Origin: Bryobacteraceae bacterium
GTDB taxonomy: Bacteria > Acidobacteriota > Terriglobia > Bryobacterales > Bryobacteraceae
Assembly: GCA_019752335.1 (NCBI GenBank)
Contig: JAIEMJ010000009.1
Span: forward strand, 98,828 to 162,827
Reading direction: 5' to 3'
Length of the DNA: 64,000 bases
Part shown: in pieces, positions 27,582 to 43,059 of the stretch
How positions within the stretch are numbered: the stretch's first letter is position 1
Layout: each line of letters begins with the position of its first letter
Notes under the pieces: generated by a model
What the model saw: the letters and a program-made list of their open reading frames with translations, nothing else
Told to the model about the DNA's origin: nothing
Databases searched by the model: none
Position numbers and translations under genes: made by a program

Positions 27582-27584
27582 CGG

Positions 27585-27926
27585 CTAAACCTCCTCAGGC
27601 TTGGTGTTCAGGGCCGCGGCGATGGCGGCTGACATCCGGTTCCACCCGGCGGTCCGTTCGCGCAACCGCTTGCGGCCGGCCGCGGTAAGCGTGTAGTACT
27701 TGGCGCGGCGGTTGTTCTCGCTGGAAGCCCATTCGGCGCTGATCAGTTTCTGATGCTCCAGGCGATACAGAGCCGGGTAAAGCGAGCCTTGGGGAATGGC
27801 GAGCGCTTCGGCGGAGATCTGCTTGAGCCGCAGCAACACGCCGTAGCCGTGGAGTGGCTTCAGCGAGACCGCCTTCAGAATCAGCATGTCGAGGGTGCCG
27901 GGAAGAAGGTCAGTCGTTTTGCGCAT
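27585..27926 (-). CDS. PadR-family transcriptional regulator
   Basis: A 113-residue winged-helix repressor with the family motifs LLPGTLDMLILKAV (residues 7-20), HGYGVLLRL, QGSLYPALYRLE (recognition helix region) and RRAKYYTLTAAGRKRL. It is the first gene of a two-gene operon with the ADOP permease and likely responds to a small hydrophobic ligand. A TAGGAG ribosome site precedes the ATG. I do not see a clear ATGT-N8-ACAT operator. Confidence 0.93.
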   Translation of the reverse strand: MRKTTDLLPGTLDMLILKAVSLKPLHGYGVLLRLKQISAEALAIPQGSLYPALYRLEHQKLISAEWASSENNRRAKYYTLTAAGRKRLRERTAGWNRMSAAIAAALNTKPEEV

Positions 27927-28143
27927 CGCTCTCCTAGTTTAGCAAGGGGAATGCGTGCACCATCCGCGCCGTCGAAGCCAACCGCGCCCCACCTGGGATC
28001 ATTCGTCGTGACGGCCAGAGATGAGCCTAGGGAGGTGGGACTTGGCCTTTTTGCGGAGCATCGGGGCCTTGCGGGTCTTGCGCTCGGTCTCGCCGGACTT
28101 CTTTTCGGCTTCTCTTTCTCGTTCTTGTCTTCGGTGGTGAGGA

Positions 28144-28625
28144 GAGCGTCGCGCTCTTTCTTCAGCGTGACGGCGCGCTCGATCTCTATTTCGGCACCGG
28201 CGACCCGCAGATGACGCGCTTAGAGCCGAACCGGCTCTTCCACAATGAAGGCAACGGGACCTTCACTGACCAGACGCGCACCCTGGGCCTGGCGCGGCCG
28301 GGCAATAAGGGAGTATCGCTTGTAGACATTGATAATGATGGCGACCTCGACCTAAACGCCCAGCTAGGCGGGCATTATCCGGGTGACCACGGAACTTAAG
28401 CGGGAATCAGAATCATTGGCTACAGATCGACTTACAGGGTACGCAGAGTAATCGTTTTGCGGTGGGAGCGCAGGTGACGGTGCGGAGCGGAAACTGGCTG
28501 GCTTACCGGGAGTGAAGGGGAGTGAGGGTTTTGGGTCGACGGATCCGTATCTGGTGCATTTGGGCTTAGGGGCGCGGACGGTGGTGGATTCTTTGGAGAT
28601 CCGGTGGCCGAGGGGGTGGCGGCGG
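28144..28625 (+). pseudogene. decayed CRTAC1/ASPIC-UnbV gene remnant
   Basis: Pieces of a CRTAC1 protein are readable in different frames. One blade repeat ends in VDIDNDGDLDL (about 28316-28350), preceded by GALDLYFGTGDPQM. The ASPIC/UnbV start is NQNHWLQIDLQGTQSN (about 28407-28455), and the C-terminal block VDSLEIRWPRG (about 28583-28615) follows. In-frame stops, two frame changes and a deletion between the blade and ASPIC parts show it is dead. The 27927-28143 stretch upstream has no supportable gene. Confidence 0.75.
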
Positions 28626-28673
28626 GAAGCGAGCGGGTGTTGGAGGGTAAGTAGATTGGGAGCGGCAAAAAAG

Positions 28674-28702
28674 AAAGGACGGCCTCGAGAGGCCGTCCTT
28701 TT
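28674..28702 (-). terminator. strong intrinsic terminator, bidirectional
   Basis: A perfect 12-bp stem (AAGGACGGCCTC with its complement, 2-base centre) is flanked by A-rich sequence on the left and TTTT on the right, so it can stop transcription from both sides. It lies 21 bases past the stop of the leftward receptor gene. Confidence 0.85.
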
Positions 28703-28722
28703 GCGAAGCGTACCGGTTCTTA

Positions 28723-31700
28723 CTAGAAGATGTACTTCAGTAGGAACCGGCCGGCGAAGCCGGGGTTGAAGAGGTCGGCCTGCTTGAACAGGGGCGAAAG
28801 CGCCAATCCCTTGGCGTTGTCCGGTGTCTTGGCGATGAGGGCATTGTAGTCGTAGCCCTTGGCGAGGTCCGTATTGCTCAGGTCGATTTCGGCACTGGCA
28901 ATTCCGCGGTTCAGCTCGGTCCACAGGTGGCGAGCCGTCTTCTGATTGAAGAGGTTGTTGGCGTTGAATTCAACCCGTAACTTACGCGTTTCGCCCATCT
29001 TAAACTCCTGGGCGATCACGAGGTTCGTATAGGTTAAAAAGGGCGTGCGGCCAAGGTCGCCACGGCCATTGACAAACGGCTGCGTACCGTTGATCGTATT
29101 CACTAGCGTGGTGAGCGGTGTGCCGGAGGCGGCATAGAAGAACGCGCCCACGTCCGTAGCCGTCTTGGTGTTCCAGTTGATGGTCTTCGAACCATACAAC
29201 TTGATGGCGTGCGGACGATCCGTGGACAAGCGGCCCTGCGGATTGAGGCCGCCCTTGGAATCCCAAAGCAACTCGTCGATATCCCAGGCGCGGCCGGCGT
29301 TGCCGCCCGGGCGGGAGTTCTGTCCAAAGGCTTCCTGCGCGGCGCCGTACAGGCCACCGCCATCGGCGCCGGTGCGGATTTCGTCGGAATTCGCCAAGCC
29401 AGCGTAGTTGCCGTACAGGCGGCTGTAGACGTAGCTGGCAGAGCCGAACCAAGAGCCATAACGCTTCGTGAGCTGGAACTCGGCCGCGTCATACTTGCGG
29501 ATCGCCTTGGGCGTGGCAAAGGGCTTGGTGAGTCCCGAGGAAGGGGTGATCAGCGCGCCGCCCTCGCCAGGATTGGCATAGTAGTACACTTCGTCGCCGT
29601 TGACGAGCACGCCCAGATCCTCGATGGTGCGGATCAGGCTGTTGTGTACGTAGGAAGCGCGCAGCACCATCTGCGACCCGAGACGGAATTCGGTGCCGAG
29701 GTTGATGTTGTCGCTGCCCATGGGCTTGATCTTGGGGTCGATGGTGTCAAAGCCGGTAACACGGCGGTTGCGGAAGGCAGCCGGGTTGGCCGGATTCCAT
29801 AGCGGCGCGCCCGGCCGGTTGGTGCTGCTGAGAGAGAATACGTCCGTCGTGTCGAGGCCGTAGTAACGCACCCGCCAGTAGTCGCCACCGAAGGTGCCGC
29901 GGGCGAGTTCGTACTTGACCCAATCGTAGTAACGGCCCCAGCTGCCATATACCTTCAGGCGGCCGTCGCCGAAGACGTCGAACGACGCGCCGAGGCGCGG
30001 GGCGAACTTCTGGCCCCAATTGAAGTGAAAGGCCGTGTCCTGGATATTGCGCTGGAAGGAAGGCACTGTCTCGCTTTCGAAACGGAAGCCAAGGTTCAGG
30101 GTAAGGCGCGGGATGATGCGCCAGTTGTCCTGGAAGTAAAAATTGCCCAGGTTGGCGCCGGTGGTGCCGCCCGTGCCGAACTCGTGATACTCGTAATAGC
30201 CATACTTGCCGCGGGCATTGCGCGGGGTGCCGGGAACGCTGGAGTTGAAGGCGCGGTCCCAGAAGATGTTGATATAGCCGCCGGTGGGGTAGCCGGTCAA
30301 CACACGGTTGACGATCTTCTGTGTACCGACGCCGGCCTTGAAGTCGTGCGTGCCGAGGAAGCGGAAGAACTTGCCGAAGTCGCCCTGGACGTAAGTGCGG
30401 GCGGCGACGTCGTAAAAGGATCCCAAGATGCGGGGCACGTTATTGAAGTTCGTCGGGGCCCGGAGAGCGGCAGGAATCTCGGAAGCGAATGACAAATTCG
30501 CGCTGGGCGCGGCGGAGGTGCTGTAGTTCACCGGGGTCGGGGATGGCAGGCCGGTATCTTTGTAGTTATCCCAGAAGCGCCCCGCCTTGATGGCGAAGAG
30601 CGTGGTGGGATTGGCCATCCACGTGAGGTCGATACCGTAGTTGGTCTGCGGCGCGAAGTAGCCAATGGTCTTGTTCACCTGTGCCGCGGCGAGCGAGCCC
30701 GTGTTGAAGTTGGGGCCCTCGCCGTTGTAACCCGGCAACCGGCCGGTGCTGGACGTGGGTGTCCAAAGGAAAAAGGCATTGCCGCGCAGGTTCTTCGTTA
30801 AGTCGAAGGAGACTTTTTCGAACATCAGGTTGTTCAGTGACTTCTGGTCGATGGAACCGGAGTCAACGCCATTGCCAAATTTGTAGTCATTCGTACGGCG
30901 GCCGAAGCGCGGGGAGGCGGCGCTAAAGAAATATACCCGGTTCTTGATGAGGTAGCCGCCCAGCGTATAGCCGAATTCGTTGATGTTGTTCTTCTGTTTC
31001 ACGTCCTGGTGATACTTGGTGGTGAGCTGATCGGTGGGGCTGAGCAGTAGACGCTTAACAGGGGCCGCATTCAGGCTGTTACCCGAAAGGTAATAGTGAA
31101 CATCGCCGTGGAAGGCGTTACCGCCGGACTTCGAGATCGCGCTGATGACGCCGCCCATAGCGCCGCCGAACTCTGCCGAAATGCCGCCCGTCTTGATCTG
31201 CACTTCCTGCAGAATTTCAAACGCGGCGTCCTGCCGGCTCTGGCCATTGATCAAACTGGTGGTGGAGATGCCGTCAATGGTGAAGTTGTTCTCAGCGCCG
31301 CTGGCGCCGTTCACCTGAATGCCACCTTCGATGGCGCCCGAATTGACGGACGTCGAAAGGACCGCCAAATTCTGGAAGCTGCGGGCCTTCGGCAACCGGT
31401 CGAACTCCTCGGCCGTAATGTTGTTGGCCATGGTGGTGTTCGTCGTGTCGATGAGCGGCGCGGCGTCGGTGATCTGCACGGTCTGCTCCGCGCTAGCGAC
31501 GGTCATGGCTGCGTTCACGCGTAGCGTCTTGCCGAGCAAAAGATTCACTTCGGGAATCTCCTGGGTGGCAAAGCCTTTCACTTCGAAACGGACGACGTAA
31601 CGGCCCGGATCGAGATTACGCACCACATATTGGCCGCTGGCGTCGGTTTTCGTTTCTACGATCCGCGCCGTGGCCTTGTTGGTGACTTTTACGTTGACAT

Positions 31701-31839
31701 TGGGCAATACCGCGCCACTGGGGTCGGTCGCCGTTCCGGTGAGTTCGCCAAATCGCTCTTGCGCCGAAAGCGCGGTGCTAAGACAGAGAATGGCGGGAAG
31801 CAAAAAGAGGGCTTTTCGTAAGCCTTGTAAAGCAGACAT
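28723..31839 (-). CDS. TonB-dependent receptor with carboxypeptidase-regulatory domain
   Basis: A 1038-residue outer-membrane receptor. It has a signal peptide (about 1-27), a regulatory beta-sandwich (about 30-115; GTATDPSGAVLPNVNV), and a plug (about 125-240) whose DRLPKARSFQNLAVLS block differs from the LNGRN form of the other receptors. The barrel ends in RFLLKYIF. An AGGAGG ribosome site lies nine bases before the ATG. The 263-base upstream gap includes an AT-rich stretch (about 31983-32045), the probable promoter region, with no further gene. A terminator follows the gene. The substrate is unknown. Confidence 0.92.
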   Translation of the reverse strand: MSALQGLRKALFLLPAILCLSTALSAQERFGELTGTATDPSGAVLPNVNVKVTNKATARIVETKTDASGQYVVRNLDPGRYVVRFEVKGFATQEIPEVNLLLGKTLRVNAAMTVASAEQTVQITDAAPLIDTTNTTMANNITAEEFDRLPKARSFQNLAVLSTSVNSGAIEGGIQVNGASGAENNFTIDGISTTSLINGQSRQDAAFEILQEVQIKTGGISAEFGGAMGGVISAISKSGGNAFHGDVHYYLSGNSLNAAPVKRLLLSPTDQLTTKYHQDVKQKNNINEFGYTLGGYLIKNRVYFFSAASPRFGRRTNDYKFGNGVDSGSIDQKSLNNLMFEKVSFDLTKNLRGNAFFLWTPTSSTGRLPGYNGEGPNFNTGSLAAAQVNKTIGYFAPQTNYGIDLTWMANPTTLFAIKAGRFWDNYKDTGLPSPTPVNYSTSAAPSANLSFASEIPAALRAPTNFNNVPRILGSFYDVAARTYVQGDFGKFFRFLGTHDFKAGVGTQKIVNRVLTGYPTGGYINIFWDRAFNSSVPGTPRNARGKYGYYEYHEFGTGGTTGANLGNFYFQDNWRIIPRLTLNLGFRFESETVPSFQRNIQDTAFHFNWGQKFAPRLGASFDVFGDGRLKVYGSWGRYYDWVKYELARGTFGGDYWRVRYYGLDTTDVFSLSSTNRPGAPLWNPANPAAFRNRRVTGFDTIDPKIKPMGSDNINLGTEFRLGSQMVLRASYVHNSLIRTIEDLGVLVNGDEVYYYANPGEGGALITPSSGLTKPFATPKAIRKYDAAEFQLTKRYGSWFGSASYVYSRLYGNYAGLANSDEIRTGADGGGLYGAAQEAFGQNSRPGGNAGRAWDIDELLWDSKGGLNPQGRLSTDRPHAIKLYGSKTINWNTKTATDVGAFFYAASGTPLTTLVNTINGTQPFVNGRGDLGRTPFLTYTNLVIAQEFKMGETRKLRVEFNANNLFNQKTARHLWTELNRGIASAEIDLSNTDLAKGYDYNALIAKTPDNAKGLALSPLFKQADLFNPGFAGRFLLKYIF

Positions 31840-32102
31840 TCTGAGAGAACCTCCTGAAGAATTCAGGTGGCTAAAGGAAACCTTCCGGGAGACAGGAAAA
31901 ACAAGCCATGGTTAAGCCTACCTTCCAACATCGATCCTTAGATCGGTCCCTCTAACCCCAGCCCTAGCGTTGGTCCCGCTGGGCATAACTATACGGTTAC
32001 AGTACCATAACTTTTGTGAAATATTACAAAATTAATATATGTACATCCCAGCGTGCCCCCTTTTGCGGTGCCTTGGCCCCCGAAATCAGTCGGATGGCCC
32101 CG

Positions 32103-32768
32103 TCACACGAGGATCTGGGGTGGCAAACGAAGGGCGGCGAGGACGTGGGTAAGGAGGGAAATGACGACGGTGTCGCTGCCGTGTTCGATTGACGTGCCGG
32201 TAATCAGTCCGACGGGGCGGCAGCGGAGTCCGGCGGTGACGACCAGGGCGCCGGAGTTGCCGGGGCGCAGGAAGAGGGGGTCTTGCGTGCGGACTAACAG
32301 GCTGTCGGCGAACTCGACTTCGCCCAGGTTGCCCGGCAAGCCAGCCTGCTGCAGGTCAACCCGGAAGCTGCCGCGCTGGACGACGATGGCGAAGCGATCC
32401 TGTCCGCCGGCGTGGATCTTGACGGGCGTGCGGCGAGGCGGGCAGAGAGGCTCGTGAAAAGGGCGCCAGCCGGGGGGCCAGGTGGGGCGGAAACCGGGAG
32501 GAGCAGCGACGCGGCAGGCAGCGGCGTCGCCGCGATTGCCGCGAGGCTTGAGTTCGGCGAAGATCACGGTCCGGCTGACGAGTCCGCTGGTAGTGTAGAC
32601 CCCGGTGAGCGTATCCAAGTAAGCGCCATTGGCGGCGAGGACATGGTTCGCGGAAACAAGCCAGAGGCCGTCGGCACTGGTGGTAAAGGCGCCGATTTTG
32701 CCTGGCGGCCGGTCGCCCTGGCCGTCGCGGACCCAGATGGGAGCGCCGATGGCGCTAGCCAAGGTCAC
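32103..32768 (-). CDS. small trypsin-like serine protease at the end of a CHAT operon
   Basis: A 221-residue protein with a chymotrypsin-fold pattern. His42 in SANHVLA, Asp81 in GDAAACRV and Ser172 in RPGNSGALV are spaced as a His-Asp-Ser triad. No signal peptide is visible, so it may act in the cytoplasm. Its start overlaps the end of the preceding gene by 14 bases, implying translational coupling. It closes a leftward operon that encodes an ECF sigma factor, an anti-sigma factor and a CHAT protease. A regulatory or effector protease role is inferred from context; the fold and triad are seen directly. Confidence 0.8.
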   Translation of the reverse strand: MTLASAIGAPIWVRDGQGDRPPGKIGAFTTSADGLWLVSANHVLAANGAYLDTLTGVYTTSGLVSRTVIFAELKPRGNRGDAAACRVAAPPGFRPTWPPGWRPFHEPLCPPRRTPVKIHAGGQDRFAIVVQRGSFRVDLQQAGLPGNLGEVEFADSLLVRTQDPLFLRPGNSGALVVTAGLRCRPVGLITGTSIEHGSDTVVISLLTHVLAALRLPPQILV

Positions 32769-33660
32769 CGTCGGCGGCCGAGCAGCAGGACTTACAGCTA
32801 CCGTCGGACAAAGGCTGGGAGGCCAGGAAGCGTCCGGTGCGGGCGAAGCTCGCGATACGGCGCAGAAACTGGGCGCGCTCCGTCAGGGGCGCCACCTCAA
32901 AGGCGGAGAGGCCATGGGGCGCGACTGGCTGCTCAGCGTGGTCCGCGGGACTGGCGGCGAAGGTGACGCCGGGCTGGCCCAGGAGCGCGGTGGAGAGCGC
33001 GAACTCGTCGAGCGAATGGGCGACGGCGCCGGGCGGTCGCGACGGGGCGTCGTAGATGTGGAGGGTGGCCAGCTTACAGCCAACGCCGGCAAATTCGGTG
33101 CCCTTGAATTCAGTGAAGGCGGAGGCGGCCCAGTGGCGCTGGCCCTCGTCGTCGCGGATTTCGAGCTGGTCGAGGGAGCCGGGCAGTTCGTACTCGAAGA
33201 CGGTGAGTCCGCAGACGGTGGGGGAGGGGTGCAGGAGCAACTCGGGGTGGGTAATTTCTGCCTTGCCAAGGCCAAGGTAGTGAATCCGCCGCGGGCGGGG
33301 CAAGCTGAGACGCGCGCGGATGCGGGGGTCGTCGTCGCGCGGCCAGTCCCTCAGCCGGATGGTGGGATTTAGGGCGGGGTTAAGGGAATTCTCCGGGGTG
33401 CGGGGGGAGGGCGAAAGGCCATGGAGGGTGGCCCGGAGACCGGACGGCAGACGATCCTCGCGCAGCCAATGGCCAAAGCGATAGTGATGTTCCCGGTCCA
33501 TGTTCAGGGCATAGGCGCGAAACTCATCCTCCGGACTCTGCACCAGCGAAATCAGGCCGTGAAACAAGACATAAAAGCGGTGGTCAGGTGGGGGAGGAGG
33601 AACGGGGACCTCGACAAAGAGCTCGTTCCGGTGGCGCAGGCGGACATTCGACTTGGACAT
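32755..33660 (-). CDS. unrecognised protein between the CHAT and serine-protease genes
   Basis: A 301-residue soluble protein with no signal peptide or membrane helix. An in-frame TTG at 33675 is an alternative start. The N-terminal third has VLFHGLISLVQSPEDEFRAY, suggesting a beta-alpha domain. A Pro run (VPVPPPPPDH) is near residue 20, and the C-terminus ends with a cysteine cluster (CKSCCS). I do not recognise a family. It starts 49 bases after the CHAT gene stop and overlaps the next protease gene by 14 bases. It may be a substrate, adaptor or regulator of the two proteases; this is inference. Confidence 0.75.
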   Translation of the reverse strand: MSKSNVRLRHRNELFVEVPVPPPPPDHRFYVLFHGLISLVQSPEDEFRAYALNMDREHHYRFGHWLREDRLPSGLRATLHGLSPSPRTPENSLNPALNPTIRLRDWPRDDDPRIRARLSLPRPRRIHYLGLGKAEITHPELLLHPSPTVCGLTVFEYELPGSLDQLEIRDDEGQRHWAASAFTEFKGTEFAGVGCKLATLHIYDAPSRPPGAVAHSLDEFALSTALLGQPGVTFAASPADHAEQPVAPHGLSAFEVAPLTERAQFLRRIASFARTGRFLASQPLSDGSCKSCCSAADGDLG

Positions 33661-33709
33661 AATTGCGGTTGGCAATAGTGATGACGTAACCCGGATGAAC
33701 TTTCCTTTT

Positions 33710-36595
33710 TCATGGATGACCGTAAAGCTGGAAAGGCGCCCAGTAGTAGGGATGGGGCTGCGAGGCGATGCTGGCCACGGTGGCCTCGCGGAGCGCGACG
33801 GCAGGAGAGGCGCCCTGGCGAAGGGCGAGGTAGAAGCCGCGCATCACCTGCGACGTAGCCGAGGAATCGACATTCCAGCGTGAGGCCAAAACCTGCCCGG
33901 CACCGGCGTCGAGGAAGGCTTGCACGAGGCTCTCTACGTTGACGGCGCCCCGATCCTCGCCGGTGCCCGAGGAGCAGGCGGCCAGCGTGGCGAGCCGCAA
34001 AGTGCGTAGGTCCAACTCGGCGATTTCGTTGGCGGTGATGAGCCGGGTTCCCAGCAGGGGTTCGCCGGCGAGAACGAGGGCGCCGTTACCGCCGTTGGCG
34101 ACGCCGTGGCCCGCGAAGTGAAAGAGGCGATGGTGGGCGAGTTCCTGTTGCAATGCAGCTACGTTGGCGCCGTCGCCGGAGAGATAGAGATGATGCGGGA
34201 AGAGTTCGCGGAGGCGTTCGGCTTCGCCGCGCGCGGCGGCGAGGATGGGAAAGCGCGCACGGTCGTGGGGGGCAACGGCGGGTTCGGCGACGACGAGCGC
34301 GGGCTGCCAGTCCGGGTTGGGCGGGCTGACGGCGGGCGAGCCCCAGCCAATGGTCTGGATGAGGGCGACGCGCGAGAGCAGGGCGCGGCCCTGGGCATCG
34401 AGCAACGCGCCCCAGGGCAGCACGGCGAGAGGGCCGTCGGGATCGATCACCAGCGTGCGGACGTTCGCCAGGCGCTCTTCGAAGGGCCCCAGGATGAGGC
34501 GGTAGAGTTCGCGGGCGCTCTCCTGCACGGCGGGTAGAGGCGAGTCCGGGTTGGCGGCCAGGGCCGCGAAACGTTGGCTGCGGTTGACGAGGTCTGGAAT
34601 CGCCAGACGCGTGACGGCAATGCCTTGGGCATCGGACCACCAGACGGCGGGTCCGGCGGGGAGCAGGGCAATGGCGAGCCGGGCTTCGCCGGCCGGGGTC
34701 GACAGACTAATGGCTTGGCCGGGATTGGGCAGCGTGCGAAAGGTCTGCCACGTACGCAGCGAGGCCTCGGCGCCCACGGTGGCGAGTTCGGCGTCAACCA
34801 GTTGCCGCCAGGCCGGGGCGACCGTGAGTGTGGTGGCATAGCGCTGACGCCGGCCCTTTAGCGCCTGGACGGTGGCGACGCTCTCGTCGACGACGGCGCG
34901 AAAATGGCGGAGGGCCTCGGTACGCTGGCCCTGGCTCCATAGCGCACGGCCGAGGACGGGCAAGAGATTCATGCGTTCGTAGAGGTCGAGTTGGCGATAC
35001 GGGAACTCCGCGCCCTGCGTGACCTTGGCGAGGCGGCTCAGGGCGAGCCTGGCTTGCCCGGCGGCTACCTCGCGGGAGGCGGCTTCTACTTCGCTGGTGA
35101 CCCGGCCGGGGCGTTGCACGGAGGGATTCAGGCGGAAGAAATCGGAACGGATGGCGTCGCGCAGCCATTGGTTCGGATGGCCGTCCATGGCGGCCATGGC
35201 CTCTTCGAAGAGCAGGGTGGCCAAGCGGGTATAACCGAAGGATTCGGCCATCAGTCCGAGCGGGCTATAGAAATTCGTGGAGAACGGCGCCGGTAGTGTG
35301 CTGCGCCAATAGCTGGTAAAGCCGCGCTGGCCGCGAGCCCAGCTTTCCGCCGGCGCGGTGAAGCCGCGCGAGGGTTCCACTAACATACTGAGGCCGCGCA
35401 GTTCGAGGTCCAGGTAGCTGCTGGCCTGGCTGCGGGCGGCGAGGTCTTCGCGCTCCAGTTGCACGTCGATCACCTGCTGGGTGGCCTTGCAGGCCATCGC
35501 CTCCTGGGCGGCGCGCAGCGCGGCCCAAGGGTACGCTCTGGCGGTGGCAAGCTTCAGGGCCAAGCTGGCCGGGACGAGGCATTCGCCCGCTCGATTCGAG
35601 CGCCGCAGACCGAGGCTCGCATGGAGGGCGGCGAGCGCCTGTCCAGCTGCGTTGCCGTTAGCCGCATAGAGTCCGCTGGCGGCGAGGCCGCTCTCGGCGG
35701 CCGCGGAGTAATCGCCGCGCACGGTCGCGTCCACGGCGCGGGCGAGGGCCTGGTCGGCGGCGGCTTGCGGGGCGGCGCGGAGGAGGTCAGCGAGGGTGGC
35801 ATCCCGCCGTTGCGTGCGCAGAAAAGCGGCGAGCCGGTCGAGGTCCGCGGCGAATTCGGCGCGGCGGGGCAACCAGTCCGTCAGCGCGATTTGGAGCAGC
35901 AGTTCGGCGGAGCCGGGCACGTCCCGCGATGGCTGACGCCGTTCGGCGACTTCGGCGATGCGCTCCTGGCGAGCGCGGAATTCGTTTTCCACGCGCTGAA
36001 CGTTCCCGGCGAAAACGCTTTGTAAGGCCGGGTCAGCCGCCGCCTTTTTCCAGGCCGCGAGCGCCGCGTGCGGGGCGGGCAGTTGCTCGCTCACTTGGGC
36101 CAGGTCCGCGTAGCCCAGGGCCGGGAAGCCCGGAAGCTCCGCGGCTGCGAGGAGCACGTCGGCGGCGGTAGCCCAATCGAGCGCCCGGTTCTCGGCGCCG
36201 GCGCGGATTCCTAGCGCGACGCCGTGGGCCATCTGCAGGCCGGCGTCGGCGGGCTCCAGCAGCGCGGCGAGCCGGCAAAGGCGGATCGCCTCGCTGGCGC
36301 CACCGCGCAGCGACGCCAGACGTCCGCGCAGGTAAAGCGAGCGCGGGGTAGGTCCTAAACGCCTTTCCGCCGCCTCAATCGAAGTAGCGAGCCGGGCCAG
36401 GGCTTCGGCGCGTTCGGCTAAGGTGAGGGGCGGGGTGCCTGGCTCGTAGCCAGGCCAATACAGGGAGTGCGGCGCCGGGATGGCGCGCAGGGCGGATTCC
36501 GCCCGTGCGAGTTGCAGATGGGGCCAGCGCCACCAGAGTCCGGCGGCGCTCGTCGCGAGGAGCAGCGGGAAGGAAATCCACCAGATGCGCCGCAT
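33710..36595 (-). CDS. membrane-anchored TPR-CHAT (caspase-like) protease
   Basis: A 961-residue protein. One N-terminal membrane helix (about residues 5-24) is followed by a long alpha-helical TPR-like region (about 60-640). The C-terminal CHAT domain (about 690-961) has the caspase-type dyad visible as His830 in HFAGHG and Cys874 in LAACSSG, plus the WNVDSSAT block. CHAT proteases are cysteine peptidases of the caspase clan, often used in bacterial signalling or immunity (for example the gasdermin and Craspase systems). Here it sits three bases after a zinc-finger/TPR anti-sigma gene, which suggests its expression is switched by the sigma factor. The substrate is unknown. Confidence 0.9.
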   Translation of the reverse strand: MRRIWWISFPLLLATSAAGLWWRWPHLQLARAESALRAIPAPHSLYWPGYEPGTPPLTLAERAEALARLATSIEAAERRLGPTPRSLYLRGRLASLRGGASEAIRLCRLAALLEPADAGLQMAHGVALGIRAGAENRALDWATAADVLLAAAELPGFPALGYADLAQVSEQLPAPHAALAAWKKAAADPALQSVFAGNVQRVENEFRARQERIAEVAERRQPSRDVPGSAELLLQIALTDWLPRRAEFAADLDRLAAFLRTQRRDATLADLLRAAPQAAADQALARAVDATVRGDYSAAAESGLAASGLYAANGNAAGQALAALHASLGLRRSNRAGECLVPASLALKLATARAYPWAALRAAQEAMACKATQQVIDVQLEREDLAARSQASSYLDLELRGLSMLVEPSRGFTAPAESWARGQRGFTSYWRSTLPAPFSTNFYSPLGLMAESFGYTRLATLLFEEAMAAMDGHPNQWLRDAIRSDFFRLNPSVQRPGRVTSEVEAASREVAAGQARLALSRLAKVTQGAEFPYRQLDLYERMNLLPVLGRALWSQGQRTEALRHFRAVVDESVATVQALKGRRQRYATTLTVAPAWRQLVDAELATVGAEASLRTWQTFRTLPNPGQAISLSTPAGEARLAIALLPAGPAVWWSDAQGIAVTRLAIPDLVNRSQRFAALAANPDSPLPAVQESARELYRLILGPFEERLANVRTLVIDPDGPLAVLPWGALLDAQGRALLSRVALIQTIGWGSPAVSPPNPDWQPALVVAEPAVAPHDRARFPILAAARGEAERLRELFPHHLYLSGDGANVAALQQELAHHRLFHFAGHGVANGGNGALVLAGEPLLGTRLITANEIAELDLRTLRLATLAACSSGTGEDRGAVNVESLVQAFLDAGAGQVLASRWNVDSSATSQVMRGFYLALRQGASPAVALREATVASIASQPHPYYWAPFQLYGHP

Positions 36596-36598
36596 CCG

Positions 36599-37480
36599 CT
36601 ATTTCGGTTTCGCTTCCGCTTGCGCGAGGAAGGAGCGTACTTCGCGAATCCAGGCTTCGTCCGTCTCCACCTGGAGCAAGGCGCGCCAGTCGTGGATGGC
36701 TTGCTGCGTCTGGCCTTGACGGTAGTAGGCGAGCGCGCGGTTGAAGAGCGCGGAGCGATCTTGCGGTCGGGCCGCCAGCACTTCGGTGAAGGCTTCCACA
36801 GCCTGGCGGAAGCCGGCCTCCGAAACGGCTTCCGCCCGTGCGGCATACGCCGCGCCCAGAATGTTCACCACGTCCAGGTTATGCGGGGCTAACCTGCGCG
36901 CTTCCTCGAGCGTCCGCACCGCGGCGCCGGTTTGATGGGTGAGCAATTCGCTCCAGGCCTGCAATCGTAAGAACTCCGGGTTGTGCTCGCCCGCGGCCGC
37001 CTGACGAGCCAACGCGGCCTGCGCGCGCAGCAGGGCCGCCGGCGGATTGGCTTCGGCGCCCCGCTGCAGATCCACCCGTCCGTAACTGGCGCCGGGCAGG
37101 CGAAAGTCAAAAGGGCGCGAGGCCGCCGAGGACTCGGCCAGCAAGTCCGAAACACTCTCCGCGGGAAACGCGAAATACCAGGTGGCCGCGGAGATCAGCA
37201 AAAGCGCCGCCGCTGAGACGGCCCACCGTTGCTGGTTCCGGCCCAGACGCCGGGATTGCCGCCCGGCAGGGCGTGCGAGATGGTTGACGACCACGGCCCG
37301 CTCGGCGATGGTCAGGTCGCGTGTGAGATCCTGCCGCGCCTGTCGCAGGGCGCTGGCGCAACTATCGCAGCCCGCAAGGTGAGTGAGCGCGGCGGCCGCT
37401 TGGTCCAATGGGAGCAAGTCCTCCACCAGGGCGGCGATTTCGAAGGAAGTAAGACAACCCGGTCTGGTTTCCGAACTCAT
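36599..37480 (-). CDS. zinc-finger anti-sigma-like membrane protein with TPR domain
   Basis: A 293-residue protein. The N-terminus has a zf-HC2-like motif (His34, Cys38, Cys41; HLAGCDSC) with Cys9 as a possible further ligand. A single membrane helix lies at about 86-106, and three or four TPR units (about 150-285) lie outside. This is the layout of an anti-sigma factor that senses through an extracytoplasmic domain. It begins six bases after the sigma factor gene and ends three bases before the CHAT gene. The sensed signal is unknown. The TPR part may contact the TPR region of the CHAT protein. Confidence 0.82.
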   Translation of the reverse strand: MSSETRPGCLTSFEIAALVEDLLPLDQAAAALTHLAGCDSCASALRQARQDLTRDLTIAERAVVVNHLARPAGRQSRRLGRNQQRWAVSAAALLLISAATWYFAFPAESVSDLLAESSAASRPFDFRLPGASYGRVDLQRGAEANPPAALLRAQAALARQAAAGEHNPEFLRLQAWSELLTHQTGAAVRTLEEARRLAPHNLDVVNILGAAYAARAEAVSEAGFRQAVEAFTEVLAARPQDRSALFNRALAYYRQGQTQQAIHDWRALLQVETDEAWIREVRSFLAQAEAKPK

Positions 37481-37486
37481 CTGTTA

Positions 37487-38122
37487 TCAAGGACGCGCGG
37501 ACGGTCCTAAACCCTTTCCATCTTCGTCACTCAGCCGATTCCGCAGGGCCGCCGTCAGGCGAAACAGCAGGCTTTCCACGCCTTTGACGGTCAGGTCCAG
37601 GGCCGGCAGGGCGGCGATCTCTTTCGAAGTAAACCCTTGGCGGTAATAGAGCCAAAAGGTGTTGCGGTCCCGGACGGCTGTCTCCGGCGGGCACAGGTCC
37701 GAGAGCATCACATCGAGGCGCTCAAAGAGCAGCCGGCGATGAAGTTCGTTCTCGGCCGGACGGGACAGGGCGAGGTCTTGCTCCAGCGCGGCGAGCGAAA
37801 CGGTTTTCCGTGCGTCGAGGGTGGGGTTCCGCAGGCGGCGTAGATAGTCGATGGTGGTAGAGTGCGAGACGGCGCGCACCAAGCCATAGACACTGTTCGG
37901 GTGATCGGATCGCACGCTGCGCAGCACCCGGTAATTCTGGGCGCAGAGCTTCAGATAAACTTCCTGTACCAGGTCTTCAATGTCCGCGCGATCAGGAATG
38001 CCGCTCGCCGACGCCGTGCGTACGACAGTGGCGACGATCAACTCGTGAAACTGGGCAAGAAAACCCTCCCAAGCCTCACTTTTTCCCGCTTGGGAGGATT
38101 TTCCCGCTTGGGAGGACGCCAA
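37487..38122 (-). CDS. ECF-type sigma factor, first gene of the CHAT operon
   Basis: A 211-residue sigma-70-like protein. Region 2 contains DIEDLVQEVYLKLC (about 48-61), and region 4 holds the FTSKEIAALPALDLTVKGVE helix-turn-helix (about 168-187). The start is unusual. The assigned TTG at 38122 is followed by a tandem duplication encoding SSQAGK twice, and upstream the frame remains protein-like (PEEFIKLL) up to a stop about 40 bases away, with only non-ATG codons available. A CTG near 38146 is an alternative. It heads a leftward series with anti-sigma, CHAT protease, an unknown protein and a serine protease. Confidence 0.85.
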   Translation of the reverse strand: MASSQAGKSSQAGKSEAWEGFLAQFHELIVATVVRTASASGIPDRADIEDLVQEVYLKLCAQNYRVLRSVRSDHPNSVYGLVRAVSHSTTIDYLRRLRNPTLDARKTVSLAALEQDLALSRPAENELHRRLLFERLDVMLSDLCPPETAVRDRNTFWLYYRQGFTSKEIAALPALDLTVKGVESLLFRLTAALRNRLSDEDGKGLGPSARP

Positions 38123-38163
38123 AAGCTTGATGAACTCTTCCGGTGGCAGAAGTCCACACTATA

Positions 38164-39243
38164 TCACTGGCGGCTAGCCGTACTAGCCTCGTAGCGCAGG
38201 ATGGCGCATAGAGATGCGGGAGGGTCCACCGAGAATACTTCGCCGCCGTGGCGGAAGGTCTCCACCGCGGCGAGATTCCAAAGATCATGCACCGCATCCG
38301 GTACCGTTTCGGGAGCGGTTTCCGGCACGCAGAGAAGATGAATGCGGCCGGATTGCGCCGCTTCCAGAATCTCCTCCGGCGCGCAACTGGTGAGCTTGCG
38401 GTTGCGACGTTCCTGGAAGCGGCGCAAGGCCTCCTGCCCTTCGCGGCGGCGGCGATGCAGCGCGCAATCGCGCGCCGCTTGCGCGATTTCACGCAGGGAA
38501 AGAGCGCTGGAACCGTGCGGAATCTGCTCGGCAAAGAGGTGGCCATGCCGGGCTGCGCGCCGAAATGCAGCCAGCTCATCTTCCAGCCCCACCAGCAACA
38601 GCAGGCGATGTCCGAACTCCGGGTAAAGGCCCTCTTCGACGCGCGCGAAAAAGTGATGCAGATGGAGGTCCAGATCCTCGCTTTCATGTCCGGTACCAAA
38701 GCCCGGTCCGGTTCCGCTAAAGTTGCGGGCGTGGGGATCCGTGTGGACGGGACGCCGGAACTCGTCGAGCGACGCGGGAACACCGAAAGGCAGGTTGAGG
38801 GCAACGCATTCGCCGTGCTGATAGCGCAGCCAACGGATGTGATTCCGCCCCAGTCCAAGGACGAAAAAGTCTTGCGGGGCTTGCACTTCGAGTAAAAAGG
38901 GCAGTAAGAGACACGCAGCGCCCGCGTAGATGCGCGGTTCGTGGACGGGCGCGTCATAGGTTTCGACGAAGTCCAGGCCAGCGAAGATGGCCAAGCCGGA
39001 GCCCCCCCGCGAGGGGCCATGTTCCAGCACCGCCTTCTCCACCTTGCCCCGCATGGGGTCGCCGGCGTGCGCCGGCAAAGCGTGAAAGAGGCCCTGCAAG
39101 GTAATCAAGCGATCCCCCTCCGGCGCGCCGGGACGCAGGGCAGGGAGCAGGACGGTGAGGCAGTCGCCGCGATGGCGGGCCAAGTGTTCCAGGACTTCAG
39201 CGTCCAGGTGGGGCGGGTGCGAGGGCATCAGGGAGGGTGTCAT
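38164..39243 (-). CDS. bacterial archaeo-eukaryotic release-factor (baeRF)-like protein
   Basis: A 359-residue soluble protein. The pattern resembles baeRF proteins: an N-terminal domain with CLTVLLPALRPG, a central RNase-fold part with FFVLGLGRNHIRWLRYQHG and NLPFGVPASLDEFRR, a His-rich loop, and a C-terminal part with LLLLVGLEDELAAFRR. These proteins are homologous to eRF1/Pelota domains and are proposed to act on stalled ribosomes or in conflict systems, without firm proof. The ATG at 39243 has GGAG eight bases upstream. It lies between the PQQ dehydrogenase gene (42-base gap) and the sigma factor gene (41-base gap), in the same direction as both. Confidence 0.7.
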   Translation of the reverse strand: MTPSLMPSHPPHLDAEVLEHLARHRGDCLTVLLPALRPGAPEGDRLITLQGLFHALPAHAGDPMRGKVEKAVLEHGPSRGGSGLAIFAGLDFVETYDAPVHEPRIYAGAACLLLPFLLEVQAPQDFFVLGLGRNHIRWLRYQHGECVALNLPFGVPASLDEFRRPVHTDPHARNFSGTGPGFGTGHESEDLDLHLHHFFARVEEGLYPEFGHRLLLLVGLEDELAAFRRAARHGHLFAEQIPHGSSALSLREIAQAARDCALHRRRREGQEALRRFQERRNRKLTSCAPEEILEAAQSGRIHLLCVPETAPETVPDAVHDLWNLAAVETFRHGGEVFSVDPPASLCAILRYEASTASRQ

Positions 39244-39285
39244 CAGTGGATCTCCACTGCCTCCTCTTTGCACGGCGAGGGCCGT

Positions 39286-40860
39286 TTAACGGACGTGAAA
39301 GACGTAGAGAGAATTGCCCAGGGCCATCGCTACGTATTGCTTGCCCTCGCTCAGGTAGCTCATGGGGTTGGAGCGCACCAGTCCGCCGCCTTGGAAGCGC
39401 CAGAGCAACTTGCCGGTGGCGGCGTTGAGCGCGAAGATCTGGCCTTCGTTGGTGGCGCCGAAGACGAGGTTGCCGGCGGTGGAGAGCACGCCGGCGTAGG
39501 GAGGCGTGAACAGCCGATGCTCCCAGGCGACCTCGCCGGTGGTGGGCTTCAGCGCGCGGATGGCGCCCCACTCTTCTTCCCCGGGAATGCTGCGAAAGCC
39601 GCCGCCGTTGTACTGTTCGCCGGCCTTGAAGTCGGCTTTGCCAAAGAAATACACGCTGCCGGCTTCGCGCGCGGCCACGTAGAGCAACCCGGTTTTGGGG
39701 CTAAAGGACGGGCTGTACCAATTGTTGGCGCCGGCCACCGACGGCCAGACGCGCGTGCCGGCCACGGTGGGCGACGTGCCGGCGACGCGGATGGGGCGTC
39801 CGCTGTCGTCGAGGCCCGTGGCCCAGGTCTGCTTGGCGTAGGGTCTGCCCATCAGGAACTGCCCCGTGGTGCGGTCCAACACGTAGGAGAAAGCGTTCCG
39901 GTTGGGGAAGAGAACTAACTTACGCTTCTGCCCACGAATTTCGGCGTCGATCAAGACGGGGACTTCGGTGGCGTCCCAATCGTGGACGTCGTGTGGCGTG
40001 AATTGGAAATACCATTTCAACTTACCGGTATCGACGTCCAACGCAAGTAAGCAATCTGAATACAAATTGTCGCCGGCGCGGACCTCGCCATTCCAGTCCG
40101 GCCCTGGATTTCCCGTGCCCCAATACAGTAAGTTCGTTTCCGGGTCATAAGCGCCGGTTACCCAAGTGGCGGCGGAGCCGTTTTTGTAACTCTCGCCGGC
40201 CCACGTTTTAGCTTCGGGATCACCGGCAGCGGGCACCGTCCAGAAGCGCCAGGCTAACTTGCCGGTCTTGGCGTCGTAAGCATCCAGGAAGCCACGAATG
40301 CCGTACTCGCCGCCCGCGATGCCCACCACGATCTTGTCCTTCACCGCTAACGGCGCGACGGTGATGGAGAGGCCGGCGCGATAGTCGGCCACGGTGGTGT
40401 CCCAGCGCACGGCGCCCGTTTTGGCATCGAGCGCGACCAGGTGGGCATCGATCGTGCCGACATAGACTAAGTCGCCCAGCACGGCGACGCCGCGGTTCAC
40501 CTGGCCGCAGCAGACGCGGATGTCGTCGGCCATGGGACGGCGGTACTTCCAGAGCGGACGGCCGGTTTTGGTGTCGAGCGCGGTAACGTGGCTCGGCGCT
40601 TCCGAGATATACATCACGCCGTCGACGACGATCGGTGTGGTTTCGAACTTCTGCAAAGAATTCGATTGATACACCCAGGCGGGCTGTAACTGGCTGGCGT
40701 TGGTGTCGTTAATCTGCTGGAGCGGCGAAAAGCGATGTCCGGCGAAGTTGCCGGAGTAAGTGAGCCAATTGCCGGGCTCCTTTTCGGCGTTCAAGAGCCG
40801 CTCGTGAGTAACTTGGGCGAGGAGCGGCAAACCAACGAAGAAAGCAATAACCAATTTCAT
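39286..40860 (-). CDS. PQQ-dependent alcohol dehydrogenase (quinoprotein)
   Basis: A 524-residue periplasmic enzyme with a signal peptide (1-16) and an eight-bladed propeller of tryptophan-docking repeats such as ALDTKTGRPLWKYRR. It has the adjacent-cysteine pair (RVCCGQ) that stacks on PQQ. In TPHDVHDWDATEV the first Asp aligns with the catalytic base and the second, two residues on, aligns with the extra Asp that marks lanthanide-dependent XoxF-type enzymes. It oxidises an alcohol and passes electrons to a cytochrome. The cytochrome gene lies just upstream with a four-base overlap. No haem domain is fused. The substrate and metal are inferred. Confidence 0.9.
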   Translation of the reverse strand: MKLVIAFFVGLPLLAQVTHERLLNAEKEPGNWLTYSGNFAGHRFSPLQQINDTNASQLQPAWVYQSNSLQKFETTPIVVDGVMYISEAPSHVTALDTKTGRPLWKYRRPMADDIRVCCGQVNRGVAVLGDLVYVGTIDAHLVALDAKTGAVRWDTTVADYRAGLSITVAPLAVKDKIVVGIAGGEYGIRGFLDAYDAKTGKLAWRFWTVPAAGDPEAKTWAGESYKNGSAATWVTGAYDPETNLLYWGTGNPGPDWNGEVRAGDNLYSDCLLALDVDTGKLKWYFQFTPHDVHDWDATEVPVLIDAEIRGQKRKLVLFPNRNAFSYVLDRTTGQFLMGRPYAKQTWATGLDDSGRPIRVAGTSPTVAGTRVWPSVAGANNWYSPSFSPKTGLLYVAAREAGSVYFFGKADFKAGEQYNGGGFRSIPGEEEWGAIRALKPTTGEVAWEHRLFTPPYAGVLSTAGNLVFGATNEGQIFALNAATGKLLWRFQGGGLVRSNPMSYLSEGKQYVAMALGNSLYVFHVR

Positions 40861-41618
40861 TGCGCACCTCGCTCGGCGGACAAGTAGGCGACTAAGTCAG
40901 TGAGTTCCTGTTCGTTCAAGCGATCCCGGTAGGGCGGCATCGTGGTGCGCCGTTCGCTGACGAGTTTGGCAATCTCTTCTTTCCACAAAGAGTGAAATGC
41001 GCCGGCCGCGTCGCGTAACTGGATTGACCAGCTATCTTCGTTGAGCCGCGTCCCGCGTACCGTGCGGCCGTCGCGCGTGGTGACCTGCACCATGCGGAAG
41101 CTCTCGTGGACTTCGGAGGCGGGGTCGGCGATTTTGGCGCGTAAGTGGGCCGCGCCCCGACGGGCGCCGATACCGGTCAGCGAAGGCCCAGCCCGGCCGC
41201 CCTCATTGCCCAGGGCATGGCATTGCAGGCAGCCCGCTTTGCCGCGCAGTACGCGCTCACCGTTGCGCGTGTCGCCGGCCACGGGCGCGGCCGAAACCGA
41301 ACCCAGGCTCCGGACGAAGGCCGCCGTTTGCCAGATTTCGCGCGCATCCATCAGCGACCCCGGCATCTCGGTGTCGGGCAGGCCGTAGCGAATGATCCGG
41401 TACAGCGAGCGATCGTCCGCCGCGCGCGGCAGCACCGGGACGGCCAGGTTGGCGCCTTTGCCGCCGCTGCCTTCCGGCCCATGGCAACCCGCGCAGCGGC
41501 CCTGGTAAAGCTGTTTGCCGTCGGCCAAGTCGGCGCTGGTGGTGTGGGGGTTCCGGGCGGGAAGGTCGAGCACGGGCGGGGGTGTTTGGAAAAGGAGCAG
41601 CGTAGCGAGCCAGAACAT
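40857..41618 (-). CDS. dihaem cytochrome c, electron acceptor of the PQQ enzyme
   Basis: A 253-residue protein with a signal peptide (about 1-19) and two CxxCH haem motifs, CAGCH (residues 42-46) in a full cytochrome c module and CLQCH (130-134) in a second one. A PPYRDRLNEQELTDLVAYL segment closes the second domain and contains the typical Met-free axial region near the C-terminus. It overlaps the dehydrogenase gene by four bases, so the pair is probably a functional electron-transfer unit in the periplasm. Confidence 0.92.
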   Translation of the reverse strand: MFWLATLLLFQTPPPVLDLPARNPHTTSADLADGKQLYQGRCAGCHGPEGSGGKGANLAVPVLPRAADDRSLYRIIRYGLPDTEMPGSLMDAREIWQTAAFVRSLGSVSAAPVAGDTRNGERVLRGKAGCLQCHALGNEGGRAGPSLTGIGARRGAAHLRAKIADPASEVHESFRMVQVTTRDGRTVRGTRLNEDSWSIQLRDAAGAFHSLWKEEIAKLVSERRTTMPPYRDRLNEQELTDLVAYLSAERGAQ

Positions 41619-41654
41619 GGGGCGATTCTCTCCGCCCAGAATTATATAGGAGAT

Positions 41655-42059
41655 TCAATCGTCACTGGGCCGCCCGCGCAACTTCTTCGTGGACGACTTT
41701 ACCGACTTCGCTTCCAGCCGCCGGACCTTCGAGCCCAACGTGGGCCGGCTCGCGCGCCGCTGCTTTGGCACGATGCCCGCTTGCGCCACCAACTCGTCCA
41801 GCCGCGCGCGCGCCTCGGCGCGGTTCGCTTCCTGCGTCCGATGCTCGCGCGCGGTGATGATCAGCACGCCCTCCTGCGTCAGCCGATTGCCGGCGAGCGC
41901 CAGCAGCCGTGTGCGCGTGGGTTCTGGCAGGGACGGGGACTGGCGCACGTCGAAGCGTAGTTCAACGGCTGTCGAGACTTTGTTCACGTTTTGGCCACCA
42001 GGCCCAGAGGCACGGACGAAGCTGAGCGTCAATTCGGAGTCCGGGATGCGCAGGGCCAT
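41655..42059 (-). CDS. arfB: alternative ribosome-rescue factor ArfB (peptidyl-tRNA hydrolase)
   Basis: A 134-residue protein with the GGQ motif of class I release factors at residues 21-23 (SGPGGQNVNKVSTAVELRF). It has the basic C-terminal tail (KVRRLEAKSVKSSTKKLRGR) that enters the empty mRNA channel of stalled ribosomes. The length matches ArfB/YaeJ. The ATG at 42059 is chosen because the family begins with xxIPxxEL, and the longer open frame upstream lies antisense to the preceding gene. It follows a regulator gene by 14 bases. Confidence 0.93.
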   Translation of the reverse strand: MALRIPDSELTLSFVRASGPGGQNVNKVSTAVELRFDVRQSPSLPEPTRTRLLALAGNRLTQEGVLIITAREHRTQEANRAEARARLDELVAQAGIVPKQRRASRPTLGSKVRRLEAKSVKSSTKKLRGRPSDD

Positions 42060-42073
42060 CGGGTGACGCGCGC

Positions 42074-42844
42074 CTACCGCCGCCGCCAGACGTCCAACCG
42101 CGAGGCGACGCCCACTACCTGGCCGACGATATCGGCTTCGTTTTCGGCAAAGAGTCGCGGGGGCGTCTTGCCGCCGGGGGCGAACTGCATGATCAACCGG
42201 CCTTCCACCAAACTGCACCAGCCGGCGGCGAAACCTTGCCGGTGTTCGACGAAGTAAATCGGCCGTTCGTGCTCGTCGCGCCAGCCGTCGGCGGCGATCT
42301 TGCGCTTGTTTTCGTCGATCAGCAGGATTGCGCCCGGCGGGAGGAAGGGGTACATCGACCAATCGTCACTGCCCATCACGGCGTAGCGCTGGCCCTTCAG
42401 GTCGGTGGCGCCCAGCAGCATCAGCGGCAGACGGCCCCAACGCTGGATGAGCCTGGTGATGTAAGTGGTCCGGCGAAAATCGACGCTGGGGTCAAGGCTC
42501 AACGGTACGGGGACCTCGACGCTGCTATCGAGCCGGACGCGCATCGGATGCGTGGCGGGGACGTCGAGCGCGGCGAGGGAGTCGGCGGCCATTTGGTGCA
42601 AGGGGACACCGTACCACGCGAGGACGTCGGTAAGGTCGAGCCGGTAGATGGTGCACAGGCTGTAGAGGCGGTAGATGCTCGGGACCGTGCCCTTGTTCTC
42701 GATATCCGCCAAGCGGCTAAGGGCGATCACGAACTCGTCGCTCTTTTGGCGTTCGGCGATGCGCTGGCTCGCTTCCTCCACGTCGCGGTAGCGCAGGTTT
42801 AAGCGCTCCCGCGTCCGTTTCAGCTTTTGCCCAGCGTCTTCCAT
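42074..42844 (-). CDS. XRE-type helix-turn-helix regulator with S24-like C-terminal domain
   Basis: A 256-residue protein starting at the ATG at 42844, where the HTH domain begins (MEDAGQKLKRTRERLNLRYR; about residues 1-75). The C-terminal part (about 150-256) resembles S24/LexA-type peptidase folds, with MGSDDWSMYPFLPPGAILL placing Ser in the SMxP position. The catalytic Lys is not clear, so self-cleavage is uncertain. It is divergent from ubiX, with a 215-base spacer that holds no gene, and it is the likely regulator of arfB and itself. Confidence 0.8.
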   Translation of the reverse strand: MEDAGQKLKRTRERLNLRYRDVEEASQRIAERQKSDEFVIALSRLADIENKGTVPSIYRLYSLCTIYRLDLTDVLAWYGVPLHQMAADSLAALDVPATHPMRVRLDSSVEVPVPLSLDPSVDFRRTTYITRLIQRWGRLPLMLLGATDLKGQRYAVMGSDDWSMYPFLPPGAILLIDENKRKIAADGWRDEHERPIYFVEHRQGFAAGWCSLVEGRLIMQFAPGGKTPPRLFAENEADIVGQVVGVASRLDVWRRR

Positions 42845-43059
42845 GCTATATTCGTGCCAACGGGACGACCCAAAGTTGGCTTCGACTACTGCTAAGCGCC
42901 TTCTAGGACCATCGTTCAAGCCATCTCCAACCCAATAATCTATTGACCAAACGGGAGTGTCTTTATTCAGTATATAAAGCTGGGGAACTGAGGGCAAGTC
43001 CTGCTTTTTCTTTTCGTTCCATTTTCGGAACAGAGGATATCGTTTCAATATTTTTAACC

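What the first reader, a model, noticed from the sequence alone, without database searches (positions are those of the whole stretch)
32103..38122. Sigma/anti-sigma-controlled operon with two proteases of different clans
The gene order is ECF sigma, zf-HC2/TPR membrane anti-sigma, membrane-anchored TPR-CHAT protease, an unrecognised protein, and a trypsin-like protease. All run leftward with gaps of 6, 3 and 49 bases and a 14-base overlap. The CHAT dyad (His830, Cys874) and the His42/Asp81/Ser172 triad are visible. CHAT proteases are known as signalling or immune effectors. A set with its own sigma factor and a second serine protease suggests a stress- or phage-triggered proteolytic cascade. 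The overall architecture is, to my knowledge, not described; this last step is inference.
Basis: partly seen in the sequence, partly recalled or inferred. Interest (0 to 1): 0.72.

Follow-up and report, generated by a model that had tools for sequence, protein, structure and literature searches.

The report
Caspase-like protease on a sigma switch
Many acidobacteria carry a conserved gene set in which a caspase-like protease is paired with, or fused to, the likely inhibitor of a gene-switching sigma factor and is followed by a protein that matched no known family in our searches, and the protease likely cuts that inhibitor to turn genes on.

Summary
The five genes exist as described, and four of them form a conserved system. 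ECF sigma, zf-HC2/TPR anti-sigma, TPR-CHAT and the 'unrecognised' protein (here 'HG') recur together in Acidobacteriota: of 24 CHAT loci found through the sigma factor alone, 21 have HG, and all 9 later HG loci have sigma, anti-sigma and CHAT. In 27 of 36 loci anti-sigma and CHAT are one protein with one predicted membrane span between them, which places CHAT outside the cytoplasm. The CHAT dyad never varies, and an invariant cysteine pair marks this CHAT group. HG has a confident predicted fold without a match in the structure libraries searched. Half of the HG proteins that could be judged carry export signals; this window's does not. The second protease is a variable accessory: trypsin/Nal1-like in 11 loci, S53 in one, absent in most. 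Likely mechanism (inferred): CHAT cleaves the anti-sigma, as TPR-CHAT Csx29 cleaves Csx30 in Craspase, with HG as gate. A phage trigger found no support. New variant of a known kind, protease-released ECF sigma.

The parts
37487..38122 (-). ECF-type sigma factor gene (211 aa; TTG is the first start in the frame, true start uncertain)
   Evidence: TIGR02937 over its cut-off; profile of 11 relatives
36599..37480 (-). zf-HC2/TPR membrane anti-sigma (predicted, 293 aa)
37358..37381 (-). zinc-binding type motif HLAGCDSC (residues 34-41)
37166..37222 (-). predicted membrane span of the anti-sigma (residues 87-105)
   Evidence: hydropathy 1.78
33710..36595 (-). TPR-CHAT protease (961 aa)
   Evidence: PF12770, 179.4 bits
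36530..36586 (-). possible N-terminal membrane anchor of the CHAT protein (residues 4-22; hydropathy only 1.29)
35489..35581 (-). stretch bounded by the invariant cysteines 339 and 369 of the CHAT protein
   Evidence: 37 of 37 operon proteins covering it
33719..34525 (-). CHAT domain with His830 (34106-34108) and Cys874 (33974-33976)
32755..33660 (-). HG protein (301 aa), family without Pfam match
32767..32796 (-). cysteine-rich C-terminal tail of HG, CKSCCSAADG
32103..32768 (-). trypsin/Nal1-like serine protease (221 aa), accessory

Best explanation
This is a conserved acidobacterial operon that pairs an ECF sigma factor and its likely anti-sigma with a TPR-CHAT caspase-like protease and a partner protein (HG), and it likely works as a switch in which the CHAT protease cuts the anti-sigma to free the sigma factor. 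All further steps are inferred: the zf-HC2 domain holds the sigma at the inner face of the membrane; CHAT sits at the outer face, fused to the anti-sigma in most relatives and as a separate, probably anchored protein here; HG, and perhaps the thiol state of the invariant cysteine pair, gates CHAT; the CHAT cut in the anti-sigma stalk serves as a built-in site-1 cleavage after which the sigma is released. The trypsin-like protease would act on or with HG and is not needed for the core.
For: Of 24 CHAT loci reached through the sigma factor alone, 21 have an HG gene beside CHAT, one ends at the contig edge and two lack it. All 9 HG loci fetched later have sigma, anti-sigma and CHAT. Anti-sigma and CHAT are one protein in 27 of 36 loci; in all 27 the strongest hydrophobic stretch follows the zinc motif(s) and precedes TPR and CHAT. 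Dyad kept in 38 of 38 alignable rows. Invariant cysteine pair in 37 of 37 operon CHAT proteins and 0 of 4 other CHAT proteins of this genome that were aligned. CHAT and HG distances correlate (r 0.72, 28 loci). Precedent: TPR-CHAT Csx29 cleaves Csx30, which inhibits an ECF sigma (PMC10028731, passages); Lon-type CalpL cleaves anti-sigma CalpT (PMC11417357, passages).
Against: No cleavage, binding or localisation was tested. 18 of 40 HG proteins whose N-terminus could be judged, this window's included, show no export signal, while CHAT is predicted outside, so HG and CHAT would not meet here without an unknown route. In the split loci, as here, the protease-anti-sigma link is genetic only; the N-terminal anchor of this CHAT protein is weak (1.29). 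zf-HC2 is below the Pfam cut-off in the window. No shared autoregulatory promoter was established. L060 and L065 have the sigma-CHAT pair without HG.
Confidence: 0.45

Rival explanations
1. CHAT processes HG rather than the anti-sigma. The operon makes and matures HG, a secreted or envelope protein in many relatives, the sigma factor only sets its expression, and the second protease is an alternative or additional processing enzyme.
For: HG, not the trypsin-like gene, is the near-constant neighbour of CHAT; CHAT-HG distances correlate more strongly (0.72) than ECF-HG (0.57) or ECF-CHAT (0.52); HG has a conserved cysteine near the C-terminus (114 of 114); where a second protease exists it lies next to HG, also when the operon is divided (L057/L111).
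Against: It does not explain why CHAT is fused to the anti-sigma in 27 of 36 loci. HG lacks an export signal in 18 of 40 judged cases.
Confidence: 0.25
2. A conflict or cell-death system: the sigma factor or CHAT responds to attack, CHAT and the trypsin-like protease form a cascade, and HG is the effector they activate.
For: CHAT proteases act in CRISPR-linked immunity (PMC10028731); ECF sigma, caspase and trypsin-like domains co-occur in proposed conflict systems (PMC8195603, passages); proteases beside HG vary (trypsin/Nal1-like, S53, and C11 beside CHAT without HG); HG diverges strongly.
Against: No PADLOC match in the operon beyond a weak partial one; no HG in viral contigs, plasmids or phages searched; HG has no structural match to a known effector; many loci have no second protease.
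Confidence: 0.15
3. The genes are chance neighbours in this genome.
For: The full five-gene order with a trypsin-like gene is uncommon (7 loci, 4).
Against: The four-gene core recurs in several families and many genera.
Confidence: 0.01

Closest known systems
Craspase / type III-E CASP (Csx29 TPR-CHAT, Csx30, CASP-sigma)
   Same: TPR-CHAT protease with His/Cys dyad encoded with an ECF sigma and its inhibitor; proteolysis of the inhibitor frees the sigma there (PMC10028731, passages)
   Different: No CRISPR-like array in window 25000-45000 and no Cas gene among the neighbours scanned; anti-sigma is a zf-HC2 membrane protein, often fused to CHAT; HG is present; PDB chains labelled 'CHAT domain protein', which I recall as Csx29, match the CHAT profile only at E about 0.1
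CalpL/CalpT/CalpS (Lon-SAVED protease, anti-sigma, ECF sigma)
   Same: Protease, anti-sigma and ECF sigma in one unit (PMC11417357, passages)
   Different: Lon-type protease with a SAVED domain there, CHAT with TPR here; soluble CRISPR-triggered system there
RseA-DegS and RsiW type regulated anti-sigma proteolysis
   Same: Membrane anti-sigma, predicted extracytoplasmic first cut (named in PMC10028731; details recalled)
   Different: The first protease would be a CHAT enzyme joined to the anti-sigma, not a PDZ serine protease; the trypsin-like protein here matches DegS only by fold (E 3.2e-5)
ECF54 neighbourhoods with CHAT, subtilase and carboxypeptidase
   Same: ECF sigma beside CHAT and other proteases (one sentence in PMC8999054)
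   Different: ECF54 is described there as lacking an anti-sigma; whether this sigma belongs to a named ECF group was not tested
EACC2-caspase systems with ECF sigma, TPR protein (DUF1822) and trypsin-like domains
   Same: Caspase-type protease, ECF sigma, TPR protein, sometimes a trypsin-like domain (PMC8195603, passages)
   Different: No DUF1822 match here at E<=1; CHAT here; HG is not mentioned in the passages read

Membership tests
Craspase / type III-E CASP | TPR-CHAT protease with His/Cys dyad | tested here: met
   CHAT 179.4 bits, dyad kept in 38 of 38 alignable rows; TPR matches below cut-off in the window
Craspase / type III-E CASP | ECF sigma and inhibitor in the same locus | tested here: met
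   36 loci with this ECF and CHAT
Craspase / type III-E CASP | CRISPR array and Cas7-11 nearby | tested here: not met
   No CRISPR-like repeats in window 25000-45000; scanned neighbours are TonB-type, PQQ, cytochrome c and baeRF genes. Cas7-11 was not searched with its own profile
Craspase / type III-E CASP | Cleavage of the inhibitor by CHAT | not testable with these tools
   needs protein
Membrane anti-sigma cut by regulated proteolysis (RseA type) | Cytoplasmic sigma-binding domain, one membrane span, extracytoplasmic part | tested here: met
   By prediction only: zinc motif, then one dominant hydrophobic stretch, then TPR/CHAT in 27 of 27 fused proteins
Membrane anti-sigma cut by regulated proteolysis (RseA type) | Sequential site-1 and site-2 cleavage | not testable with these tools
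   needs protein
ECF54 | ECF54 sigma without anti-sigma | tested here: inconclusive
   An anti-sigma-like gene is present, which goes against it; group assignment was not possible because the classification paper is not held
EACC2/TRADD-N caspase systems | DUF1822 TPR protein with the ECF sigma | tested here: not met
   No DUF1822 match at E<=1 in the operon
Trypsin/Nal1-like serine protease (third-party gene) | S1 fold with His-Asp-Ser triad | tested here: met
   18 of 18, fold match; relative L111 passes the Nal1_C cut-off (30.0 of 26.1), the window's own protein matches no Pfam family
Bacterial gasdermin (as identity of HG) | Structural match to solved gasdermins (recalled to be in the PDB) | tested here: not met
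Known anti-phage defence system | PADLOC profile match over the operon | tested here: not met
   Only a partial match of the sigma factor, E 0.012

The most novel reading that the evidence does not exclude
A widespread CRISPR-free cousin of Craspase: a transmembrane receptor whose outer half is a caspase-like CHAT protease and whose inner half is the anti-sigma, so that an outside signal, read by the HG protein of unmatched fold (perhaps through thiol chemistry between its C-terminal cysteine and the invariant cysteine pair), makes the receptor cut itself and send its sigma factor to DNA. In this lineage the receptor is split in two and HG has been teamed with a swappable second protease.
Probability: 0.25. 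Interest if true: 0.82.

Novelty: new variant of a known kind. Interest (0 to 1): 0.6.

Why it matters
In the papers found here, the tested case of a CHAT protease controlling an ECF sigma is CRISPR-linked Craspase; a CRISPR-free set with the protease covalently joined to a membrane anti-sigma would show a direct caspase-to-transcription route in ordinary bacteria and a simple system for learning what activates CHAT enzymes. HG is a family with a confident predicted structure, no structural match in the libraries searched and a near-constant genetic partner, so its role can be tested directly.

Tried and rejected
Chance clustering: rejected by recurrence. Two proteases as the core: rejected, most loci lack the second. 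A notebook entry of mine says the second protease occurs only in the window's family; that is wrong, L041 is from another family. Phage or mobile origin: no HG match in viral contigs with profile A3, or in plasmids and phages with P0002 alone, so distant relatives could be missed. HG by fold: nothing in PDB, VIA-align or BFVD. HG by sequence: Pfam 0 of 94 members, PDB sequences only E 0.15. Genome scan with P0002 found nothing; with A3 four loci, three with contig lengths equal to contigs already found and one equal to a contig found later. Phylum-wide HG search with A2: 2 of 396 genomes; it scored at most 6 candidates a genome and missed known cases, so I do not use it as a frequency. One of the five HG-positive genomes (G112) is a weak match with stops whose stretch shows no operon; I treat it as chance. 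Shared promoter of the ECF genes: the best bipartite word pair is in 5 of 35 loci against 3 in each of 5 shuffles; not pursued. The window CHAT alone finds nothing in the PDB; profiles do.
Full report
OBSERVATION. The ECF is supported by TIGR02937 and CHAT by PF12770 at 179.4 bits. The anti-sigma has TPR matches, a sub-threshold zf-HC2 match, an HxxxCxxC motif and one hydrophobic span. The protease matches no Pfam model, but its triad is invariant in 18 of 18 aligned sequences, and its predicted structure (pLDDT 92.9) matches alpha-lytic protease, HtrA/DegS-type proteases and rice Nal1. The genome (7.2 Mb, 55 contigs) has six CHAT matches. A contig of a same-family genome equals in length a record named Solibacteraceae bacterium SbA4, so I infer Acidobacteriota, Solibacteraceae/Bryobacteraceae.

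CONSERVATION, HG ROUTE. HG by sequence: 14 proteins at E<=0.001 with P0002, itself included, and 83 with a 17-member profile (which scored a capped set of candidates). Genomes with HG, the window's own included: 5 of 151 relatives with P0002, one of them probably chance; 13 of 399 of the class with profile A1; 16 of 237 of the family with profile A3. These searches score few candidates per genome, so I take them as lower bounds. Twelve loci of this route (window included) carry both this ECF and CHAT; L040 has CHAT, HG and the protease but starts at a contig end. Nine further HG stretches from the family search all have ECF, anti-sigma and CHAT, L111 with HG and protease on the other strand.

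CONSERVATION, SIGMA ROUTE. The ECF profile (A4) was built from 11 HG-bearing operons, so it targets this clade. It matches at E<=1e-25 in 43 of 399 class genomes, 56 places. Ten places lay in stretches already fetched, 40 were fetched new, six were not fetched. Of the 40 stretches, 24 hold a CHAT gene with the ECF (in L063 the ECF pair and the CHAT/HG pair face each other); 16 do not, some of them cut by a contig end. Of the 24, 21 have HG beside CHAT, L061 ends at the contig edge, and L060 and L065 lack HG and have a C11 clostripain-type gene on the opposite strand. Only 7 of those 21 match the HG profile singly at E<=1e-3; the other 14 were assigned by position and shared start motif and, as a group (A5), by profile comparison, so single assignments among them could be wrong. 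HG far from any CHAT is rare: with full flanks only L047, apart from second tandem copies, cut stretches and short fragments in L095 and L096. In the five other CHAT stretches of this genome the HG profile has no match (L017-L021); in two of them the next gene is an S41 peptidase and in one a DUF4384 protein.

CHAT AND TOPOLOGY. The dyad is present in 38 of 38 alignable rows of 39; the odd row is the N-terminal piece of the L014 gene. Cys339 and Cys369 (window numbers) are present in 37 of 37 operon proteins that cover them and in 0 of 4 other CHAT proteins of this genome; the fifth, on C41, was not aligned. In 27 of 36 loci zf-HC2, TPR and CHAT are one protein, and in all 27 the strongest hydrophobic stretch lies after the zinc motif(s) and before TPR and CHAT, at 1.43 to 2.69 on the Kyte-Doolittle scale, the next best never above 1.58. 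With zf-HC2 in the cytoplasm to meet the sigma factor (recalled knowledge of this class), CHAT falls outside. In the nine split loci eight have an anti-sigma whose best stretch is 1.19 to 2.17; L063's separate anti-sigma was not measured. Some separate CHAT proteins start with a hydrophobic segment, strong in L050 and L063, weak in the window (1.29), none in L042, L081 or L089 as called. Pairwise distances correlate: CHAT-HG r 0.72, ECF-HG 0.57, ECF-CHAT 0.52 over 28 loci, none of 2000 permutations reaching any of them; shared descent contributes to all three.

SECOND PROTEASE. Trypsin/Nal1-type genes lie next to HG in 11 loci: window, L013, L014, L040, L041, L042, L050, L110-L113; in L041 the protease lies between two HG genes. 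An S53 peptidase with a pro-kumamolisin domain takes the place in L015. L041 is from another family than the window, so the accessory is not confined to one family. Of the 12 loci with a second protease, HG could be judged in 10, none with an export signal; L042 and L113 could not be judged. Four metagenome contigs seem to carry HG and the protease together (equal longest-contig lengths 52531, 3747, 2277, 1488). In L057, the same contig as L111, HG and protease form a unit on the strand opposite to sigma, anti-sigma and CHAT.

HOW IT MAY WORK. Shown by sequence: composition, order, fusion, invariant catalytic and cysteine residues, predicted folds. Inferred: CHAT cuts the anti-sigma, HG gates it, the sigma then acts. 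The model stands on the fusion of protease and anti-sigma, on Csx29/Csx30 (PMC10028731, passages) and on CalpL/CalpT (PMC11417357, passages). Its main weakness is that HG of this lineage has no visible way out of the cytoplasm. Maturation of HG by CHAT and a conflict role stay open.

COMPARISON WITH PRINT. Nine searches of the open library listed no paper that I recognised as describing this set; of the papers listed I read passages of four. The nearest are Craspase, CalpL/T/S, ECF54 neighbourhoods with CHAT (PMC8999054, passages) and EACC2-caspase systems with ECF sigma (PMC8195603, passages). The main ECF classification paper is not held, so an entry there cannot be excluded. In the PDB the CHAT profile finds 8rot ('CHAT domain-containing protein', E 2.2e-12), separase (E 2.7e-5), 8tl0 (E 3.7e-4; SAVED-CHAT according to PMC11417357) and 'CHAT domain protein' chains that I recall as Csx29 (E about 0.1).

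VERDICT. Real and conserved; as a set not found in the print searched; mechanism inferred. New variant of a known kind.

Noticed in passing
L018:8315-12072 and L019:7285-12474 (same genome as the window, contigs C5 and C26): Two other CHAT genes of this genome are directly followed by S41 peptidase genes, and L019 also has a sigma region 4 protein on the opposite strand: CHAT beside a second, unrelated protease recurs.
   Followed up: partly
L060:5782-7431 and L065:5740-7077: C11 clostripain-family genes on the opposite strand just after a sigma-linked CHAT gene that lacks HG.
   Followed up: partly
window 38164-39273: baeRF-type (archaeo-eukaryotic release factor-like, ribosome hibernation-type) gene ending 41 bases before the ECF frame, same strand.
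   Followed up: no
window 38080-38123: An 18-base unit repeated twice in tandem at the very start of the ECF frame, where relatives have ordinary sigma region 2 sequence.
   Followed up: no
L014:8972-11516: The CHAT gene lies in two overlapping frames that share a repeated stretch; assembly error or real break not decided.
   Followed up: no
L055: Record titled Acidimicrobiia whose contig length equals that of G032, a genome placed in the window's family; the title is probably a misassignment.
   Followed up: no
window 53122-54135: ORF with a PADLOC PDC-S01 match (E 3.6e-37), 15 kb from the operon.
   Followed up: no
L114:3784-5232: One open frame matches both the ECF and the anti-sigma profiles, a possible sigma-anti-sigma fusion.
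   Followed up: no
L013:9278-11058, L041:9063-11896, L043:9188-11050, L046:9391-11222, L081:7399-9475: Two HG genes in one operon, often clearly diverged from each other.
   Followed up: partly
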